In this document: positions 25,216-44,796 of the stretch, in pieces | Position numbering within the stretch: the first letter of the stretch is position 1 | How the letters are laid out: each line of letters opens with the position of its first letter | IMG/VR virus record: IMGVR_UViG_3300021959_007301 | Location: 1 to 64,000 of that record | Reading direction: 5' to 3' (one strand) | Length of the DNA stretch: 64,000 bases | Source: a virus | The notes under the pieces: generated by a model | The model's database searches: none | Told to the model about the DNA's origin: nothing | What the model saw: the letters and a program-made list of their open reading frames with translations, nothing else | Made by a program: the position numbers and the translations under genes

Positions 25216-26430
25216 ATGGCTGATGAAATCTATATAAACACAGGGTCGAGTTTTCAACAACCGTACCAAGGTCAATCTGTAAGAAATGCTCAATCGCTAG
25301 AAGTCAGACAGACTCCTGCACAGACTCCTGCAAACGCAAGACAACCTAGTACGTATCAAAACAGACAACCGTTTACCTACAGAAGTCCTGTAAATGCACA
25401 GACACCATTTATAAGAAACGCTCAGCAACCCTTTACATACCAAAACCAAGGTAGAACACCTTTTACCTATAACTATCGTTCTCCGTTCACGTATGCACGT
25501 CAGGGACAGACTCCTTTCACGTATGCAAGACAGGGTAGAACACCATATGTTGCAAATGCACAACAACCGTATCCTTATATCGCAAATAGTCAGACTCCAT
25601 ACATTGCTAATGCTCAACAACCCTATCCGTACATAGCAAACAAACAGAGTCCATACATTGCAAATGGTCAGAGTCCATACATTGCAAATGCTCAGTCACC
25701 TTATATTGCAAACGCTCAACAACCGTATCCGTACATTGCATCGTATCAAAGTCCGTTTACCTATAATCATAGACAACCGTTTACCTATGCAAGACAGGGT
25801 AGGTCACCATTTACGTATAGTAATCAACAACCTTACCCATATATTGCACAGACACCTTATACGTTTAATGCAACTGGAACACAAAGCATCAGTCCTCTAG
25901 ACCAATCTTGGGGCCCATCAGGTGCAAGTCCATGGGTTCCTCGTCAAAGTGTTAACTCTTCAGGATTCCCTGAAGCATTCGCAACAATGGGGTTTAGTTT
26001 AGACACTACAAATAACCAAGTCGATGTTAGCTGGAAAGCTGGTACTTCAGCACAAATGGCAACAGTGTATACCGACTCAATTAATTATCAGTCTCCAGTA
26101 ACAGATTCTTCAACATTTGAATGTAAATATACAGTATCTCAGCAATCGTGTTCAGGTAATTGTATGAGTGGTGCATTTGGGCCCACACCAGTTACCGATG
26201 GGTATAATTCAGGAACATATTATTCACTCACAACATTTGGTTGGATGGCAAAGGTTAATCCAAACTATGGTTCGTCCTTTTCAAGGGTTGAAACTGGTAT
26301 TGGTGGCACATATGGTGTAACATTTACAGTCCGTGCAACTCCTTCAGGAAGTAGTGACAGTTATATTACAACTTATACTTCAGGTGGAATAGAACTGATT
26401 GCATCTACAGGACAGTTTAACGAGAACTAA
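25216..26430 (+). CDS. Repeat-built tail protein 1 (PFTY/PYIANAQ repeats plus C-terminal globular domain)
   Basis: 404 residues. Residues about 35-215 are back-to-back repeats of two lengths: 8 residues (TPYIANAQ, SPFTYNHR) and 10 residues (QPYPYIANAQ, TPFTYARQGQ). Each begins with x-Pro-aromatic and ends in Gln or Arg. There is almost no Lys or acidic residue. Codons differ between copies, so amino-acid sequence rather than DNA is conserved. Residues 216-404 form a separate domain with Cys in SQQSCSGNCMSG. No family is recognised; an elongated beta-structured fibre is inferred. A strong Shine-Dalgarno is absent. Confidence 0.8.
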   Translation: MADEIYINTGSSFQQPYQGQSVRNAQSLEVRQTPAQTPANARQPSTYQNRQPFTYRSPVNAQTPFIRNAQQPFTYQNQGRTPFTYNYRSPFTYARQGQTPFTYARQGRTPYVANAQQPYPYIANSQTPYIANAQQPYPYIANKQSPYIANGQSPYIANAQSPYIANAQQPYPYIASYQSPFTYNHRQPFTYARQGRSPFTYSNQQPYPYIAQTPYTFNATGTQSISPLDQSWGPSGASPWVPRQSVNSSGFPEAFATMGFSLDTTNNQVDVSWKAGTSAQMATVYTDSINYQSPVTDSSTFECKYTVSQQSCSGNCMSGAFGPTPVTDGYNSGTYYSLTTFGWMAKVNPNYGSSFSRVETGIGGTYGVTFTVRATPSGSSDSYITTYTSGGIELIASTGQFNEN

Positions 26431-26432
26431 AA

Positions 26433-27248
26433 ATGGCAGAGTTGCAAACCACACAACAACCGTATCCTTATATTGCACAAGGTCAAACACCTTATGCATT
26501 GCAGGGTAGAACGCCTTATATTGCTAATGCACAGCAACCGTATCCTTATATTGCGAATGCACAAAGTCCATATATTGCTAATGCAAGACAACCTGTAACC
26601 TATGCAAGACAGGGTCAAACACCGTTTACGTATCAGAGTAGACAACCATTTACTTATCAGAACAGACAACCGTTTACATATCAAAATAGACAACCTGTTA
26701 CCTATGCACGTCAAGGTCAAACACCATTTACCTATAGTAACAGACAACCTGCAACGTATGCTAGACAAGGTAGAACACCTTTCACGTATAACAATCAACA
26801 ACCTTATCCGTACATTGCAAATGCTCAACAACCCTATCCGTACATTGCAAATGCACAGGAACCAAATATTAGGTCTGCACAACAGGCATATCCTTACATT
26901 GCAAATGCAAGGAATCCGTTTACCTATCAACATAGGTCACCTTCTACATATAGAAACCCTGTAAATGCACAGAGTCCGTATATTGCAAATAGTCAAACAC
27001 CATTTACCTATCAAGTTGCATATCAGATTCCTTATACTATAAGGTCACCATTTACCTATCAAGTATCCTACCCAACTACAAGAACCGTTGGGCCAGTTGC
27101 AAAGGTTAAAGGTGTTTTTGTGAATGATAGTGGAACACTTAGAAAACTTGATGAAGTATATGTAAACGATGGTGGAACATTAGAAAAAATTCACCAGTCC
27201 GTTCCTACTGCAAGATTCTCTAAGAATCCAAGTAACACGAGTGTATAA
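26433..27248 (+). CDS. Repeat-built tail protein 2 (PFTY/PYIANAQ repeats)
   Basis: 271 residues, 2 nt after the previous stop. Residues 5-215 are the same 8/10-residue repeats (PYIANAQ, PFTYQNRQ, PFTYARQGQT, EPNIRSAQ). The last 45 residues carry two copies of a vyVNDgGTLxK motif (VFVNDSGTLRKLDEVYVNDG), a short beta module seen at the ends of other phage fibre proteins. It lacks the globular C-terminal domain of repeat protein 1. A late promoter overlaps its stop region. Confidence 0.8.
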   Translation: MAELQTTQQPYPYIAQGQTPYALQGRTPYIANAQQPYPYIANAQSPYIANARQPVTYARQGQTPFTYQSRQPFTYQNRQPFTYQNRQPVTYARQGQTPFTYSNRQPATYARQGRTPFTYNNQQPYPYIANAQQPYPYIANAQEPNIRSAQQAYPYIANARNPFTYQHRSPSTYRNPVNAQSPYIANSQTPFTYQVAYQIPYTIRSPFTYQVSYPTTRTVGPVAKVKGVFVNDSGTLRKLDEVYVNDGGTLEKIHQSVPTARFSKNPSNTSV

Positions 27249-27251
27249 ATA
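27244..27251 (+). promoter_or_regulatory. T4-type late promoter placed to give a leaderless mRNA (27257 gene)
   Basis: Perfect TATAAATA, then GTATT, then ATG at 27257. Expected +1 is the A of the ATG. No Shine-Dalgarno sequence is present. Confidence 0.8.
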
Positions 27252-27256
27252 GTATT

Positions 27257-27589
27257 ATGGCGATAATTGCAAACATATACATAGACCAAGGTACTGATTT
27301 TTCCATTACTGTAGACGTTACAGATTCTGCAGGGGAAGTTTTAGAATTAAGTGGTTACACTGCAACTGCACAAGTGAGAAGAACTTATACCTCATCTACA
27401 GTTGCTGCAACCTTTGATACGTCTATTGCAGAATTAGCAGGACAGGTGACTATCTCGTTAACCGATACTGTAACTGCAGGACTGGAAGGTGGAAGATACG
27501 TGTATGACCTAAATATTGAAAGCAGTGCTGGTCAGAAAACTCGTGTTATAGAAGGACAAGCAATTGTCACACCAGGCGTAACGAGGTAA
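27257..27589 (+). CDS. Small Ig-like/beta-sandwich virion protein
   Basis: 110 residues. The pattern IYIDQGTDFSITVDVTDSAG, then LSGYTATAQVRR, then GRYVYDLNIES and GQKTRVIEGQAIVTPGVTR is that of a small beta-sandwich domain widely found in phage tail and baseplate proteins (BppU-like N-terminal type). It probably decorates the fibre or connects subunits. The late promoter lies exactly 5 nt before the start, so its own message should be leaderless. Confidence 0.72.
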   Translation: MAIIANIYIDQGTDFSITVDVTDSAGEVLELSGYTATAQVRRTYTSSTVAATFDTSIAELAGQVTISLTDTVTAGLEGGRYVYDLNIESSAGQKTRVIEGQAIVTPGVTR

Positions 27590-27593
27590 TAAA

Positions 27594-27812
27594 ATGGCAG
27601 GAAATATTAAAGCAAGAGTATTAACAAACAATACAATTCGTGCAAAACAGGTTGCAGTTGGTAACTCATCAACTAATGTAAACTTGTCTGCAAAATCTAT
27701 TAACGAACTTGCAGATGTTAACGTAATTGAAACAGATGAAGGTGTATTGAAGTATAACGCTACTACAGACAAGTGGGAAACCTCTAATGTTTTAGATGGT
27801 GGAACTTTTTAG
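27594..27812 (+). CDS. Small fibre-associated protein
   Basis: 72 residues, 4 nt after the Ig-like gene. The end (SINELADVNVIETDEG, then LKYNATTDKWETSNVLDGG) is the ELxDVN...YNxxTxxWE motif common in phage tail-fibre proteins, where it sits near trimerisation regions. Alone, it may be a fibre connector or a capping piece. Function unknown. Confidence 0.68.
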   Translation: MAGNIKARVLTNNTIRAKQVAVGNSSTNVNLSAKSINELADVNVIETDEGVLKYNATTDKWETSNVLDGGTF

Positions 27813-27828
27813 ATAATTTAAAAAATTT

Positions 27829-28710
27829 ATGTTATGTTCACGTGACGAGTGGTCTCCACTACGTGAGATTGTTGTAGGGACACTCAAAGGATTTCAAAAA
27901 CAAGACAATTATTCAGAGTATCATACTACTGAATTCATATACGATATATTTGTTGAGGCAGAAGAAGGACTTAACAAATTTGTTAATATTCTAGAATCCA
28001 ATAATGTAAAGGTTTACAGACCTAATGGAATGTGTTATAATGTTAGGGATTGTGCTGTCGTCATAGATGATGTTATAGTTGAAGGGTCTATGCGATATGA
28101 AAAAGAGTACGGAAATCTATCTACACTTAAAAAAATATTTTTTGAAAAATGGTCTGAAGGATACACATGGATATCAGGCCCCAAACCTTCTTGGAATTCA
28201 GAATTTGATATTATTTTTGATGGTGCAAATATCTGTAGACTGGGAGATAATCTACTCATTGCAACAAACGAAACTGCAAATCGATATGGAAGATTGTGGT
28301 TAGAAAAACAATTTCCTAATAAAAATATTGATTACATTTCTCTAAGAGATAACATATCACACATAGACACAACTATTGTTCCCATATCAGAGGGTACAGT
28401 TATGATTAATGCTAACAGAGTCAACAAAGACAATGTACCAGTATTTTTTAAAGATTGGGACATTATTTGGATACATGATGAGGATATCGTAGAGGAGAGA
28501 CCTGTCATTAAAGACGAGATAGCAGGAAAAATGATTGGTATGAATACTCTTTCTCTTAATCATAATACACTGTTTGTGAATGAAAGTCAAGTAAAATTAA
28601 TGGATAAATTGGGTAAGAAAGGATTTAATTGTATACCTGTACCTCTAAGATACACACGTGAGTTATCAGGTGGACTACATTGTTGCACTTTAGACCTCGT
28701 TAGAGGTTAA
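27829..28710 (+). CDS. Amidinotransferase-family enzyme (AGAT/StrB-like)
   Basis: 293 residues. The N-terminus SRDEWSPLREIVVGT follows the SxNEWDPLxEVIVG pattern of arginine:glycine and inosamine-phosphate amidinotransferases. Other family motifs are in order: NVRD (71-74), FDGANICR (130-137, equivalent of the FDAADFxR strand), HID (178-180, catalytic His) and GGLHCCTLDL (281-290, catalytic Cys285). The family moves an amidino group from arginine to an amine, or in relatives hydrolyses guanidino groups. All catalytic positions appear intact. It sits within the tail-fibre cluster and is not itself a structural gene. Substrate unknown. Confidence 0.82.
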   Translation: MLCSRDEWSPLREIVVGTLKGFQKQDNYSEYHTTEFIYDIFVEAEEGLNKFVNILESNNVKVYRPNGMCYNVRDCAVVIDDVIVEGSMRYEKEYGNLSTLKKIFFEKWSEGYTWISGPKPSWNSEFDIIFDGANICRLGDNLLIATNETANRYGRLWLEKQFPNKNIDYISLRDNISHIDTTIVPISEGTVMINANRVNKDNVPVFFKDWDIIWIHDEDIVEERPVIKDEIAGKMIGMNTLSLNHNTLFVNESQVKLMDKLGKKGFNCIPVPLRYTRELSGGLHCCTLDLVRG

Positions 28711-28716
28711 AGATGT

Positions 28717-28724
28717 TATAAATA
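28717..28724 (+). promoter_or_regulatory. T4-type late promoter, TATAAATA (28856 fibre gene)
   Basis: Perfect octamer 7 nt after the amidinotransferase stop, giving a leader of about 126 nt before the ATG at 28856. Confidence 0.8.
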
Positions 28725-28739
28725 CTAGTACAAATCAAG

Positions 28740-28816
28740 GTGTCATTCAGTGAGACACGACCCACATGGTGAGTGGACAGGTATATAATGGTCTTCTAGG
28801 GATATGTGAACTAGAA
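28740..28816 (+). other. Structured 5' leader before 28856
   Basis: Two hairpins fall in the long leader: GTGTC (28740-28744) with GACAC (28754-28758), and TTCTAG (28794-28799) with CTAGAA (28811-28816). The ribosome binding site TTAGGAGA follows. This is the longest untranslated gap in the left half; no gene was found in it. Confidence 0.4.
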
Positions 28817-28855
28817 TAAGCTTATTTAAATTAAACACATTTTAGGAGAAATAAA

Positions 28856-30271
28856 ATGGCAACAGTAATTCAAATTAAAAGAAGTACTGGGGTTTCTGCA
28901 CCTACTACGTCAGACCTTTCAGAAGGAGAATTGGCGTATATTCAGGACAGAAGTAACAGTGGTGCTGGTGCAAAACTTTTCATAGAATCAGTTGACTCCG
29001 ACAATAGTACTCCATTAATCCATGCGATTGGTGGTAAGTTCTATACCGATATTATTGATGGTTCATCTGCTACACCAGCAGATTTCAAAGTCGGTAACGG
29101 TTCAACATCAGGTGGTTCTGTAAAGTTTTACGAAGATTCGGACAATGGTGTTCACTTCGTTGCACTTAAGTCGCCAGACTCAGTCGCTTCAGACTTAACT
29201 TTTGTACTTCCAGCATCAGATGGTAGTGCAAACCAAGTATTAGGAACAGACGGTTCAGGTAACCTATCTTTCCTTTCAACAACATCAACACTTGCAGGTG
29301 CATCTGACTCAGATATCTCTACTCCATCATCAGGACAAATCCTTGTTCATGACGGTTCAGATTCATTTGACAACGTAACACTAAGTGGAGACGTGACACT
29401 TGCATCTAATGGTGCAGTCACAATCGCTTCTAACGCAGTTGAAGTCGGTATGATTGACTTCTTAGTTGACGAAGATGACATGAACTCTGATTCAGATGTC
29501 AAAGTCCCTTCACAACAATCTGTTAAAGCATACGTTGATTCACAAGTAACTGCTCAAGATTTAGACGTTGCTGGTGATTCAGGAACAGGTGCAATTGATT
29601 TAGATTCACAATCATTAACGATTGCTGGTACATCTAATGAGATTGAAACATCTGCTTCAGGACAAACAATAACAATCGGTTTACCTAATGACGTAACAGT
29701 AGGAAATGACCTAACAGTTACAGGAAACTTAACAGTTTCAGGAACAACCACAACTGTAGACTCAACAACAGTATCAATTGCAGACCCTGTATTTGAAATT
29801 GGTGACGATTCTGCAGACGACAACCTCGATAGAGGTATTAAATTCAAATATAACGATGGATCTGCTAAAGTAGGTTTCTTCGGTATGGACGAATCTAATG
29901 AGAAGTTCGTAGCATTACATGATGCAACAGACAGTTCTTCAGTATTCACAGGTACAGCAATGGATGCAGTATTTGGTGGATTAGAAGCAACAGGTCTTGC
30001 ATTATCAGGTTCAATTACTTCAGTCGATGGTGCAGCTCCAACTGCAGGTCAATTATTAATTGGTAACGGTTCTAACGGAGACATGGAACTTGCAGCTCTA
30101 ACTGCAGGCTCTAACGGTGTAACAATCACCAACGCAGACGGTTCTATAACTATTGAAAATGCGATTGCTTCTACATCACAAGTTGGTGTGGCATCATTTG
30201 CTTCTTCAGAGTTCTCAGTAACTGGTGCTGGTGAAGTTTCTATCTCCAACATAGACGGTGGTTCATTCTAA
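28856..30271 (+). CDS. Tail-fibre-like protein with GNLTVSGTTTTV shaft module
   Basis: 471 residues with ribosome binding site TTAGGAGA. The N-terminus MATVIQIKRSTG then APTTSDLSEGELAYIQD is the fibre attachment domain also present in the next gene. Near residue 285 is LTVTGNLTVSGTTTTVDSTT, the shaft module shared with the 31629 and 32792 genes, followed by a DNLDRGIKFKYND ... GFFGMDE domain. The body is Ser/Thr/Asp/Gly-rich. Probably a host-range-related fibre. Confidence 0.75.
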   Translation: MATVIQIKRSTGVSAPTTSDLSEGELAYIQDRSNSGAGAKLFIESVDSDNSTPLIHAIGGKFYTDIIDGSSATPADFKVGNGSTSGGSVKFYEDSDNGVHFVALKSPDSVASDLTFVLPASDGSANQVLGTDGSGNLSFLSTTSTLAGASDSDISTPSSGQILVHDGSDSFDNVTLSGDVTLASNGAVTIASNAVEVGMIDFLVDEDDMNSDSDVKVPSQQSVKAYVDSQVTAQDLDVAGDSGTGAIDLDSQSLTIAGTSNEIETSASGQTITIGLPNDVTVGNDLTVTGNLTVSGTTTTVDSTTVSIADPVFEIGDDSADDNLDRGIKFKYNDGSAKVGFFGMDESNEKFVALHDATDSSSVFTGTAMDAVFGGLEATGLALSGSITSVDGAAPTAGQLLIGNGSNGDMELAALTAGSNGVTITNADGSITIENAIASTSQVGVASFASSEFSVTGAGEVSISNIDGGSF

Positions 30272-34343: not shown

Positions 34344-35315
34344 ATGGCGTCAGGTAATCAAAGCGTAAAAACACCTACAGGGTGGAGTGCTACAAGAGGT
34401 GCATGGGTAAAAACTGCACAAGGTACTTGGAGTGCTGTAAAACAAATTTACATCAAAACTCCTACTGGTTGGAATGACGCTTCAGGTCAAGAGTTAACTC
34501 AACAACCTTATCCGTACATTGCAAATGGTCAGTATCCATATATTGCTAATGCACAACAACCTTATCCGTACATTGCAAATGGACAAACACCATATATTGC
34601 AGATGCACAACAACCTTATCCTTATATAGCAAATGCACAATCACCATATATTGCTGATGCACAACAACCTTATCCTTACATTGCAAATGCACAGTCACCT
34701 TATATTGCAAATGGTCAGACACCATTTACGTATCAACATAGACAACCATTTACATATGCTAGACAAGGTCAGACACCATTTACGTATCAACATAGACAAC
34801 CTGTAACATATGCTAGACAAGGACAAACTCCTTTCACATATCAAAACAGACAACCGTTTACCTATCAACATAGGTCACCGTTTACCTATCAACATAGGTC
34901 ACCGTTTACATACAACCATAGGTCTCCATTTACATACAGAAACCCTGTGTCTGCACAAGAACCTAATATTAGAAATGGTCAAACACCGTTCACTTATAGT
35001 GCAAGGTATCCTGCAAATGCTCGATATCCAGCAAACGGTCAAACACCGTTCACTTATAGTGCAAGGTATCCTGCAAATGCAAGACAACCAGTAGCATTTA
35101 GGTCACCGTTTACATATCGTGTACCTTATATTGCTAATGCAAGACAACCAAACAGTGCAAGGAACCCATTTACCTATCGTGTGCCTTATATTGCAAACGC
35201 AAGACAACCAAGTACAGCACAACAACCGTATACGTATAACTTCAGACAGAATGTTGTATACTTCTACGGTGGTGGTGGCGGCGGTGGCGGTTTCTTCCCA
35301 CAACAATTGAAATAA
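34344..35315 (+). CDS. Repeat-built tail protein 3 (PYIANAQ/PFTY repeats, polyglycine end)
   Basis: 323 residues. Residues 1-50 are a distinct basic start with two TPTGW motifs. Residues 52-305 are 8/10-residue repeats: PYIANAQ types first, then PFTYQHRQ/PFTYARQGQT, then RYPANARYPANGQ and RVPYIANARQP types. The C-terminus has eight consecutive glycines followed by FFPQQLK, reminiscent of polyglycine-containing receptor-binding tips. Several repeats are near-identical at DNA level here (periods 24, 54 and 60 nt). Confidence 0.8.
   Translation: MASGNQSVKTPTGWSATRGAWVKTAQGTWSAVKQIYIKTPTGWNDASGQELTQQPYPYIANGQYPYIANAQQPYPYIANGQTPYIADAQQPYPYIANAQSPYIADAQQPYPYIANAQSPYIANGQTPFTYQHRQPFTYARQGQTPFTYQHRQPVTYARQGQTPFTYQNRQPFTYQHRSPFTYQHRSPFTYNHRSPFTYRNPVSAQEPNIRNGQTPFTYSARYPANARYPANGQTPFTYSARYPANARQPVAFRSPFTYRVPYIANARQPNSARNPFTYRVPYIANARQPSTAQQPYTYNFRQNVVYFYGGGGGGGGFFPQQLK
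34713..34820 (+). repeat. Near-identical tandem repeat, period 54 nt
   Basis: GGTCAGACACCATTTACGTA recurs at 34713 and 34767, with nearly the whole 54-nt unit (18 residues) repeated in frame. It lies inside repeat protein 3. Confidence 0.75.
34979..35080 (+). repeat. Near-identical tandem repeat, period 60 nt
   Basis: The stretch starting GTCAAACACCGTTCACTTAT near 34979 is repeated 60 nt later with about 40 identical bases, encoding TPFTYSARYPANAR twice. It indicates recent duplication within repeat protein 3. Confidence 0.75.
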
Positions 35316-35333
35316 TGAGGATTATAAAGTAAA

Positions 35334-36161
35334 ATGGCAACAGGTTTTTATAGGACGATAACAACAGGAAATGCGAGAAGCACGATAAACGTGCAGACTC
35401 CGTTTACCTATAATGCTAGGTATCCTGCATCAGCACAACAACCGTTTACGTTCCAAAACCCATTTACGTATTCCAATAGATATCCTGCATCAGCACAACA
35501 ACCTGTAACTTATCGGTCACCGTTTACATATCGTGTGCCTTATATTGCTAATGCAAGACAACCGTTTACCTATAGAGTACCATTTACATATAGGGTTCCT
35601 TATATTGCTAATGCAAGACAACCGTTTACATACAACTATAGGTCACCATTTACCTATAGAAACCCTGTGTCTGCACAAGAACCAAATATAAGGTCTGCAC
35701 AAGAACCAAATATAAGGTCAGCACAAGAACCTAACATTAGAAATGCACAAAGTCCATATATTGCATCAGCACAACAACCGTACCCATATATTGCAAATGC
35801 ACAATCGCCTTATATTGCTAATGCACAACAACCGTATCCTTACATTGCAAATGGACAATACCCATATATTGCTAGTGCAAGACAACCGTTTACATATCAA
35901 CATAGACAACCAGTGACATATGCAAGACAGGGTCAAACACCTTTCACCTATCAGCATAGACAACCAGTGACATATGCAAGACAGGGTCAAACACCTTTCA
36001 CCTATCAAAATAGACAACCATTTACTTATGCACGTCAAGGTCAAACACCATTTACCTATCAACATAGACAACCGTTTACCTATGCAAGACAGGGTAGAAC
36101 TCCAGTTGCAAGATGGGATGGTGAATTATCACAACAGTGGCCTGCAACACCTATTTCCTAG
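35334..36161 (+). CDS. Repeat-built tail protein 4 (PFTY/PYIANAQ/EPNIRSAQ repeats)
   Basis: 275 residues, 18 nt after repeat protein 3. After about 20 residues (MATGFYRTITTGNARSTINV) nearly the whole protein is repeats: RYPASAQQPF, RVPYIANARQPF, EPNIRSAQ in three copies, PYIANAQS, QPYPYIANAQ, and PFTYQHRQPVTYARQGQT copies. The C-terminal 20 residues (TPVARWDGELSQQWPATPIS) are unique. Arg is frequent and Lys practically absent. Confidence 0.8.
   Translation: MATGFYRTITTGNARSTINVQTPFTYNARYPASAQQPFTFQNPFTYSNRYPASAQQPVTYRSPFTYRVPYIANARQPFTYRVPFTYRVPYIANARQPFTYNYRSPFTYRNPVSAQEPNIRSAQEPNIRSAQEPNIRNAQSPYIASAQQPYPYIANAQSPYIANAQQPYPYIANGQYPYIASARQPFTYQHRQPVTYARQGQTPFTYQHRQPVTYARQGQTPFTYQNRQPFTYARQGQTPFTYQHRQPFTYARQGRTPVARWDGELSQQWPATPIS
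35901..36008 (+). repeat. Tandem 54-nt repeat, two nearly perfect copies
   Basis: Units 35901-35954 and 35955-36008 start CATAGACAACCAGTGACATA and differ by about one base over 54 nt (18 residues, in frame). Other repeats in the same gene differ at many synonymous positions, so this copy is recent. Confidence 0.8.
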
Positions 36162-44088: not shown

Positions 44089-44796
44089 ATGGACAAATTT
44101 GGTTACACACACTTAATGTGTGCATATGACTATTATAGGACTAATGCATATGAGAGTTGGATTCGTGACAATGTGAAAGATAAAGTCGTCTGTGACTTAG
44201 GTGCAGGGACTGGAATCTTAATGTGGCTTGCATACATAAATGGTGCAAAAAAGGTCATTGGTATAGAAAGAGAAGTGGAGACTTTGAAACTACTACATTA
44301 TCGTTTCGATAACATACCTGAGATGGAGATTATTGAAGGAGACATCCATGAGATGGATTATCCTGAGAGTGACATCTACCTACAGGAAAATATAGGAGCA
44401 CAGTTTATACAAGAGCGTGTTGATTTGCTCTTTGAAAACTGCAGAAGACAAGGTATTATAGATAAAGTATACCCAAACAGGTATAAAATTTTAGAGGGTA
44501 TATGCGAAGAAGAAACCTTTATTCGAATAGAATCTGATAAAAATTTTATGGAAGGGGGTAAAGATTTTTTTAGAAAGCACAATTTAACACCAAAACAGAC
44601 ATTGGTAGACAGTAAGACTAAAGTGTTAAATACTAAACATGAAGGACACATATCAGAATTTAAGGTGGAGATGTTAAAAGGAGATGCTAATCATATGTTA
44701 TGGGAAATGAGTTTTGATGGTGATTTTGTAATATCTAACTATCTAACTCCATCTCATTGGAAAGCAAGTTGGGGGTTTTTAGATGGTACAACCTAA
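44089..44796 (+). CDS. PRMT-like protein methyltransferase inserted between terminase genes
   Basis: 235 residues. SAM site: DLGAGTG (36-42) and acidic E60 at the end of strand 2. The features of protein arginine methyltransferases are present: a YYRTNAYESW helix (15-24), a double-E hairpin with E100 and E109 spaced nine apart and Gly at +3, and a THW-like loop as SHW (222-224). The C-terminal part is shorter than in cellular PRMTs (about 340 residues), so the beta-barrel/dimerisation region is reduced. It starts 3 nt after gp16 and overlaps gp17 by 14 nt. Substrate unknown. Confidence 0.75.
   Translation: MDKFGYTHLMCAYDYYRTNAYESWIRDNVKDKVVCDLGAGTGILMWLAYINGAKKVIGIEREVETLKLLHYRFDNIPEMEIIEGDIHEMDYPESDIYLQENIGAQFIQERVDLLFENCRRQGIIDKVYPNRYKILEGICEEETFIRIESDKNFMEGGKDFFRKHNLTPKQTLVDSKTKVLNTKHEGHISEFKVEMLKGDANHMLWEMSFDGDFVISNYLTPSHWKASWGFLDGTT

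What the first reader, a model, noticed from the sequence alone, without database searches (positions are those of the whole stretch)
27829..28710. Complete amidinotransferase-family enzyme embedded among fibre genes
The motif order NVRD, FDGAN, HID and GGLHCC (Cys285) is intact, so the enzyme should be active, yet its neighbours on both sides are structural fibre genes and no small-molecule pathway is nearby. It lies just downstream of two Arg-rich repeat proteins. Possible roles are modification of a virion amine, alteration of host arginine metabolism, or making a guanidino compound as a countermeasure.
Basis: partly seen in the sequence, partly recalled or inferred. Interest (0 to 1): 0.78.

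Follow-up and report, generated by a model that had tools for sequence, protein, structure and literature searches.

The report
Phage amidinotransferase in tail-fibre locus
A marine virus of bacteria carries, between its tail-fibre genes, an intact optional gene for an enzyme that moves the amidino group of arginine onto another molecule; related enzymes often sit in sugar-coat gene clusters, so it may alter the host surface, but its real target is untested.

Summary
Window 27829-28710 encodes a complete 293-aa AGAT/StrB-type amidinotransferase with its active site intact and under purifying selection, in a marine T4-like (pelagimyophage-like) phage. It is a scarless optional cassette: 7 non-redundant relatives carry it at this site, 11 have the site empty, and four 135-154 kb relatives lack it altogether. 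Phage amidinotransferases are not new (Campylobacter phages, a cyanophage, hundreds of IMG/VR contigs), but many sit in sugar, radical-SAM or oxygenase clusters. Here the gene stands alone beside fibres, as does a 55% identical copy in an otherwise unrelated phage. The best, but not exclusive, tree places its six-member clade next to a second type of SAR11 amidinotransferase found in surface-glycan islands (NeuB, CMP-sugar and polysaccharide-deacetylase genes; one beside 23S rRNA, HVR2). Most likely it guanidinylates an amine of a surface glycan or its precursor and changes the receptor late in infection (inferred, about 0.4). AGAT-like metabolism and virion modification remain open. The genome also has an accessory PRMT-like methyltransferase, but its link to this gene is not significant (p = 0.13).

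The parts
27829..28710 (+). amidinotransferase gene (293 aa): D74, D131, H178, D180, C285 active site; the optional cassette
27594..27812 (+). 72-aa ORF directly upstream, PHROG 13853 (unknown); marks the left edge of the insertion site
27257..27589 (+). L-shaped tail-fibre assembly-like protein (PHROG 3304), first gene of the presumed late unit
27244..27251 (+). TATAAATA, T4-late-promoter-like box before the assembly gene (weak: boxes are about twice as frequent as chance in the window)
28717..28724 (+). TATAAATA box just after the amidinotransferase, before the fibre gene; kept in relatives with and without the cassette; right edge of the insertion site
28856..30271 (+). downstream fibre/structural protein (PHROG 697)
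25216..27248 (+). two PYIAN/TPFTY repeat proteins upstream (404 and 271 aa); also present in phages without the enzyme
44089..44796 (+). accessory PRMT-like methyltransferase; possible but unproven functional partner

Best explanation
The gene encodes a catalytically competent amidinotransferase that takes the amidino group of L-arginine onto Cys285 and passes it to an amine. It is an optional cassette, the last gene of the fibre-assembly unit upstream, probably expressed late. The acceptor is most likely an amino group on a surface glycan or its nucleotide-sugar precursor (for example a de-N-acetylated amino sugar of the host envelope), which becomes a guanidino group. The likely benefit is a changed receptor, with less adsorption of progeny to debris and to infected cells, which would fit its place beside receptor-binding fibres. 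Shown: family, fold, intact active site, purifying selection, clean presence/absence at one site. Inferred: arginine as donor, late expression, glycan acceptor, effect on the receptor.
For: Family and fold; invariant active site in 76 viral sequences; dN/dS 0.07-0.15 in four close pairs; same-site cassette, 1264-1282 bp occupied against 379-413 bp empty, 7 occupied and 11 empty non-redundant sites, absent from four 135-154 kb relatives; a 55% copy behind fibre genes in a phage sharing only 3 of 100 ORFs. For a glycan acceptor: of 78 viral loci with a relative, 40 have a UDP-glucose/GDP-mannose dehydrogenase and 19 a DegT aminotransferase within six genes; the cyanophage copy lies among glycosyltransferases; the nearest cellular genes in the best tree lie in surface-glycan islands with NeuB, cytidylyltransferase and, in three of four SAR11 loci, polysaccharide deacetylase within two genes, one beside 23S rRNA, the place of the SAR11 surface island HVR2 (PMC2217521).
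Against: No glycan genes near the gene in this phage. The sister position is only 80/89, and AU tests do not reject grouping with AGAT types (p 0.16) or with the main viral clade (p 0.48). No background rate was computed for the neighbour genes. Nothing tests substrate or receptor effect. A fibre-locus position may be a recombination hot spot only.
Confidence: 0.4

Rival explanations
1. Small-molecule guanidino metabolism: an AGAT-like enzyme makes guanidinoacetate, homoarginine or a guanidino polyamine from host arginine, possibly followed by N-methylation by the PRMT-like protein of the same genome.
For: AGAT and HsvA are among the closest structures; grouping with AGAT types is not rejected (p 0.16); an accessory PRMT-like methyltransferase is in the genome and in one other carrier; viral creatine-pathway genes have been discussed in an ocean survey (PMC11360552).
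Against: AGAT and the metabolic SAR11 type form a separate 100/99 clade without the phage genes. The methyltransferase is missing from the close relative L004/L005 (exact empty site), is present in a phage without the enzyme, and the association is not significant (2 of 3 against 1 of 9, p 0.13). No other metabolic gene nearby.
Confidence: 0.22
2. Virion modification: the enzyme guanidinylates lysines (to homoarginine) or a glycan on the tail fibres or repeat proteins next to it.
For: All six clade members are beside fibre genes, in two unrelated backbones; presumed co-transcription with the fibre assembly gene.
Against: Fibre and repeat proteins have the same Lys and Arg content in phages with and without the enzyme (a weak test). 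Family members known to me act on small molecules (own knowledge).
Confidence: 0.15
3. Arginine hydrolase (deiminase-like) that depletes arginine or removes a guanidino-based host signal or defence.
For: Same superfamily; weak hits to arginine deiminase and dimethylargininase models.
Against: Pfam ADI 15.9 bits, cut-off 22.8; NCBIfam hydrolase models 13.7-23.5 bits, cut-offs 300-450; structure Z 28-30 for deiminases and about 26 for DDAH against 35-37 for amidinotransferases.
Confidence: 0.06
4. Passenger gene: cargo at a recombination-prone site with no benefit to the phage.
For: Patchy occurrence, empty sites in close relatives.
Against: dN/dS 0.07-0.15 and invariant active site over deep divergence, several lineages keeping it at the site.
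Confidence: 0.07

Closest known systems
StrB1, inosamine-phosphate amidinotransferase (Streptomyces, 1bwd)
   Same: Fold (Z 37.3, 287 residues), active site, best sequence match
   Different: 30% identity, 348 aa against 293; the phage clade is not StrB (AU p 0.010); no streptomycin-type pathway nearby
AGAT, L-arginine:glycine amidinotransferase (human; SAR11 metabolic type)
   Same: Fold (Z about 35) and active site
   Different: Separate 100/99 clade, Ser177 where AGAT has Met302; grouping not formally rejected (p 0.16)
Second-type SAR11 amidinotransferases in surface-glycan islands (L149, L288, L289, L290)
   Same: Sister to the phage clade in the best tree, 80/89
   Different: 366-394 aa, about 30% identity, embedded in polysaccharide genes
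Phage amidinotransferases: Campylobacter phages CP220/CPt10/CP20, cyanophage S-SCSM2R
   Same: Phage-borne, same family, accessory (PMC2853527)
   Different: 25-28% identity; set in radical-SAM or glycosyltransferase/oxygenase clusters, not alone between fibres
PHROG 25854 (unknown function)
   Same: Profile match 5e-31 over most of the protein
   Different: No assigned function

Membership tests
AGAT/StrB-type amidinotransferases | Pentein fold over the full length | tested here: met
   AF2 pLDDT 92.5; Z 35-37 to four solved amidinotransferases over 284-287 residues
AGAT/StrB-type amidinotransferases | Catalytic Cys and His with acidic partners, guanidino-binding Asp | tested here: met
   D74, D131, H178, D180, C285 aligned with StrB1 and AGAT
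AGAT/StrB-type amidinotransferases | Closer to amidinotransferases than to deiminases or DDAH | tested here: met
   Z 35-37 against 28-30 and about 26; sequence search finds amidinotransferases first
AGAT/StrB-type amidinotransferases | Transfers the amidino group of arginine to an amine | not testable with these tools
   needs an assay
AGAT sensu stricto (glycine acceptor) | Groups with AGAT in the tree | tested here: inconclusive
   Best tree separates them; AU p 0.16 does not reject
StrB orthologues | Groups with StrB1 in the tree | tested here: not met
   AU p 0.010
Arginine deiminase (PF02274) | Reaches the curated Pfam score | tested here: not met
   15.9 bits, cut-off 22.8
SAR11 surface-island amidinotransferases | Sister position in the tree | tested here: inconclusive
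   80/89 in the best tree; alternatives not rejected
Campylobacter-phage radical-SAM/amidinotransferase module | Radical-SAM genes around the amidinotransferase | tested here: not met
   Neighbours are fibre and assembly genes

The most novel reading that the evidence does not exclude
A distinct clade of single-gene phage amidinotransferases travels with tail-fibre loci and remodels the receptor: it guanidinylates amino sugars of the host envelope late in infection (or a glycan on the fibre), giving superinfection exclusion by a chemistry not yet described for phages.
Probability: 0.27. Interest if true: 0.78.

Novelty: new variant of a known kind. Interest (0 to 1): 0.47.

Why it matters
Amidinotransferases occur in hundreds of phage contigs, yet I found no phage copy with an assigned substrate, and surveys file such genes under amino-acid or creatine metabolism. 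A version reduced to one gene, at a fixed site with natural empty-site controls and beside fibres, is the simplest case in which to ask what phages guanidinylate. If the target is the receptor, it adds a new chemistry of host-surface alteration in pelagic bacteria whose surface islands are thought to vary under phage pressure.

Tried and rejected
(1) Creatine-like pathway with the PRMT-like gene: a first comparison showed it as one of only three ORFs shared by two carrier genomes and absent from three non-carriers; a wider set broke the link (Fisher p 0.13). Kept as a rival only. (2) Fibre or repeat proteins as substrate: no difference in Lys/Arg content between carriers and non-carriers. (3) A travelling fibre module shared with the unrelated phage of L075: the shared fibre stretch is of a generic type (PHROG 697), so only the placement is used. 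(4) Window 2OG-Fe(II) oxygenases as the usual oxygenase-like partner of viral amidinotransferases: no BLAST similarity, and non-carriers have them too. (5) A single placement of the enzyme in the tree: AU tests leave three open. (7) Rfam: nothing above chance in the fibre region.

Full report
WHAT IS THERE. The ORF at 27829-28710 (+) encodes 293 aa. Compared with solved structures by sequence, only amidinotransferases match with confidence: StrB1 (E 8e-29), HsvA, SxtG, AGAT; a 23-row family profile gives E 1e-102 for StrB1. The AF2 model (pLDDT 92.5) aligns to SxtG, StrB1, HsvA and AGAT at Z 35-37 over about 285 residues, to arginine deiminases at 28-30 and to DDAH at about 26. Hydrolase models of Pfam and NCBIfam are below their cut-offs. 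PHROGs has a family of unknown function (25854). D74, H178 and C285 are in all 76 viral and 66 bacterial rows, D180 in all but one; D131 is D or E; R197, aligned with a conserved Arg of AGAT and StrB1, is in 73 of 76 viral rows. One departure: the Ser aligned with the second Ser of AGAT 'SSKW' is Gly in this copy and two others.

THE PHAGE. The window is part of an 87,242-base IMG/VR record of a T4-like marine phage: portal 56% identical to cyanophage S-BnM1 and 55% to Methylophilales phage Melnitz, fibre assembly protein 54% to Melnitz-1 and 47% to Pelagibacter phage HTVC008M, with CsgG/CsgF genes as described for pelagimyophages and Melnitz (PMC9004378). The host is unknown; SAR11 or OM43-like bacteria are a guess from relatedness.

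AN OPTIONAL CASSETTE. Five other contigs carry 97-100% identical copies in the same gene order. Phages 54-60% identical in this protein (L030, L039, L072, L073, L074) carry it at the same site. In 22 related contigs the site is empty: 379-413 bp lie between the assembly gene and the fibre gene, against 1264-1282 bp when occupied, the difference being one gene. After removing redundancy there are 7 occupied and 11 empty sites. Four records of 135-154 kb with the empty site have no match to the protein anywhere. In Melnitz-1 and HTVC008M the assembly gene is also followed by fibre genes without it. The cassette ends just before a TATAAATA box and a conserved leader of the downstream fibre, both kept with or without the cassette. 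With another such box at 27244 it would be the last gene of a late unit starting at the assembly gene; such boxes are only about twice as frequent as chance in the window, so this is inference. dN/dS is 0.07-0.15 in four close comparisons, at or below that of most neighbouring genes: it is kept as a working protein.

ANOTHER PHAGE, AGAIN BEHIND FIBRES. A 55% identical copy (L075), sister to L074 in the tree (100/100), lies in a phage record that shares only 3 of 100 window-genome ORFs: this enzyme and two matches to fibre segments. There too it stands two ORFs behind a fibre-like gene. All six members of the clade are thus beside fibre genes, in two unrelated backbones. This may reflect function or a recombination hot spot.

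RELATIVES. The family is common in viruses: at least 426 IMG/VR stretches. In 78 non-redundant loci (six genes either side), 60 have a 160-220 aa oxygenase-like neighbour (its member in S-SCSM2R is annotated 2OG-Fe(II) oxygenase; the member tested has no Pfam or PHROGs hit), 40 a UDP-glucose/GDP-mannose dehydrogenase, 19 a DegT aminotransferase. No background frequency was computed. Campylobacter phages have it in a radical-SAM module noted in 2010 (PMC2853527). A karst-lake survey lists a viral glycine amidinotransferase among metabolic genes (PMC8226683), and an ocean survey discusses viral creatine-pathway genes (PMC11360552). I found no paper that assigns a substrate to a phage copy.

CELLULAR SISTERS. 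62 of 197 SAR11-family genomes have a family member. The sampled common type groups with human AGAT at 100/99; in L280 it lies next to a creatinase/M24 gene. A second, rarer type (L149, L288, L289, L290) lies among surface-glycan genes: NeuB, cytidylyltransferases, DegT aminotransferases, and in three of the four a polysaccharide deacetylase within two genes. L289 lies beside the 23S rRNA gene, where SAR11 keeps its surface island HVR2 (PMC2217521). In the best tree the phage clade is sister to this type plus a Nitrospiraceae gene (80/89). AU tests: union with StrB is rejected (p 0.010), union with AGAT types is not (p 0.16), nor with the main viral clade (p 0.48). The two best placements both lie among genes with sugar-pathway neighbours, which is why a glycan amine is my first choice of acceptor; the tree does not prove it.

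HOW IT MOST LIKELY WORKS. By the established chemistry of the family (own knowledge), Cys attacks the guanidinium carbon of arginine, ornithine leaves, and the amidino-Cys adduct is passed to an amine; C285, H178 and the acidic residues would do the same here. A deacetylase next to an amidinotransferase in SAR11 suggests the order 'free the amine, then guanidinylate it'. A phage that brings only the second step would depend on amines made by the host. Changing envelope amines late in infection could lower adsorption of progeny to debris and to infected cells; a pairing of a receptor-blocking gene with a receptor-binding gene is known from phage T5 (llp and oad, own knowledge). Everything after 'probably active amidinotransferase' is inference; I give it 0.4.

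A SECOND ACCESSORY GENE. Window 44089-44796 encodes a PRMT-like protein: sequence matches to PRMTs, a double-E loop E100/E109 kept in four homologues, and only protein arginine methyltransferases among the 50 listed structure matches (Z 11-14, model pLDDT only 69). It too is optional: the contig of L004 has an exact empty site. It would be a natural partner for an enzyme that makes guanidino groups, but in contigs covering both sites it is in 2 of 3 lineages with and 1 of 9 without the amidinotransferase (p 0.13).

VERDICT. The function is a testable guess.

Noticed in passing
window 28711-28855: Leader of the fibre gene 28856: a late-promoter-like TATAAATA box followed by three small hairpins with GTGA-type loops, conserved in 13 phages; 6 of 12 predicted pairs show changes on both sides with pairing kept. 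Single copy in the window, no Rfam hit; possibly a translational operator.
   Followed up: partly
window 44089-44796: Phage-encoded PRMT-like methyltransferase (235 aa, double-E loop, listed structure matches all PRMTs) inserted between the small and large terminase genes; optional, with an exact empty site in a close relative.
   Followed up: partly
window 25216-27248 and 34344-36161: Four proteins made largely of PYIAN/TPFTYQ/ARQG repeats, present in the related phages, with no match to the first-array protein in the isolate-phage collection.
   Followed up: no
L024 1427-2852 (genome about 75427-76852): CsgF and CsgG homologues, as in pelagimyophages and Melnitz.
   Followed up: no
L024 9749-10861 (genome about 83749-84861): 370-aa protein with a marginal match to Druantia DruA; shared with the other long carrier genome G001 and absent from three non-carriers.
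   Followed up: no
L006 5091-5639 and homologues in 60 of 78 viral loci: A 160-220 aa family with an HxD...H...R pattern, without Pfam or PHROGs match in the member tested, is the most constant neighbour of viral amidinotransferases.
   Followed up: partly
L149, L288, L289, L290: SAR11 genomes carry two kinds of amidinotransferase, an AGAT type and one in surface-glycan islands beside polysaccharide deacetylases.
   Followed up: partly
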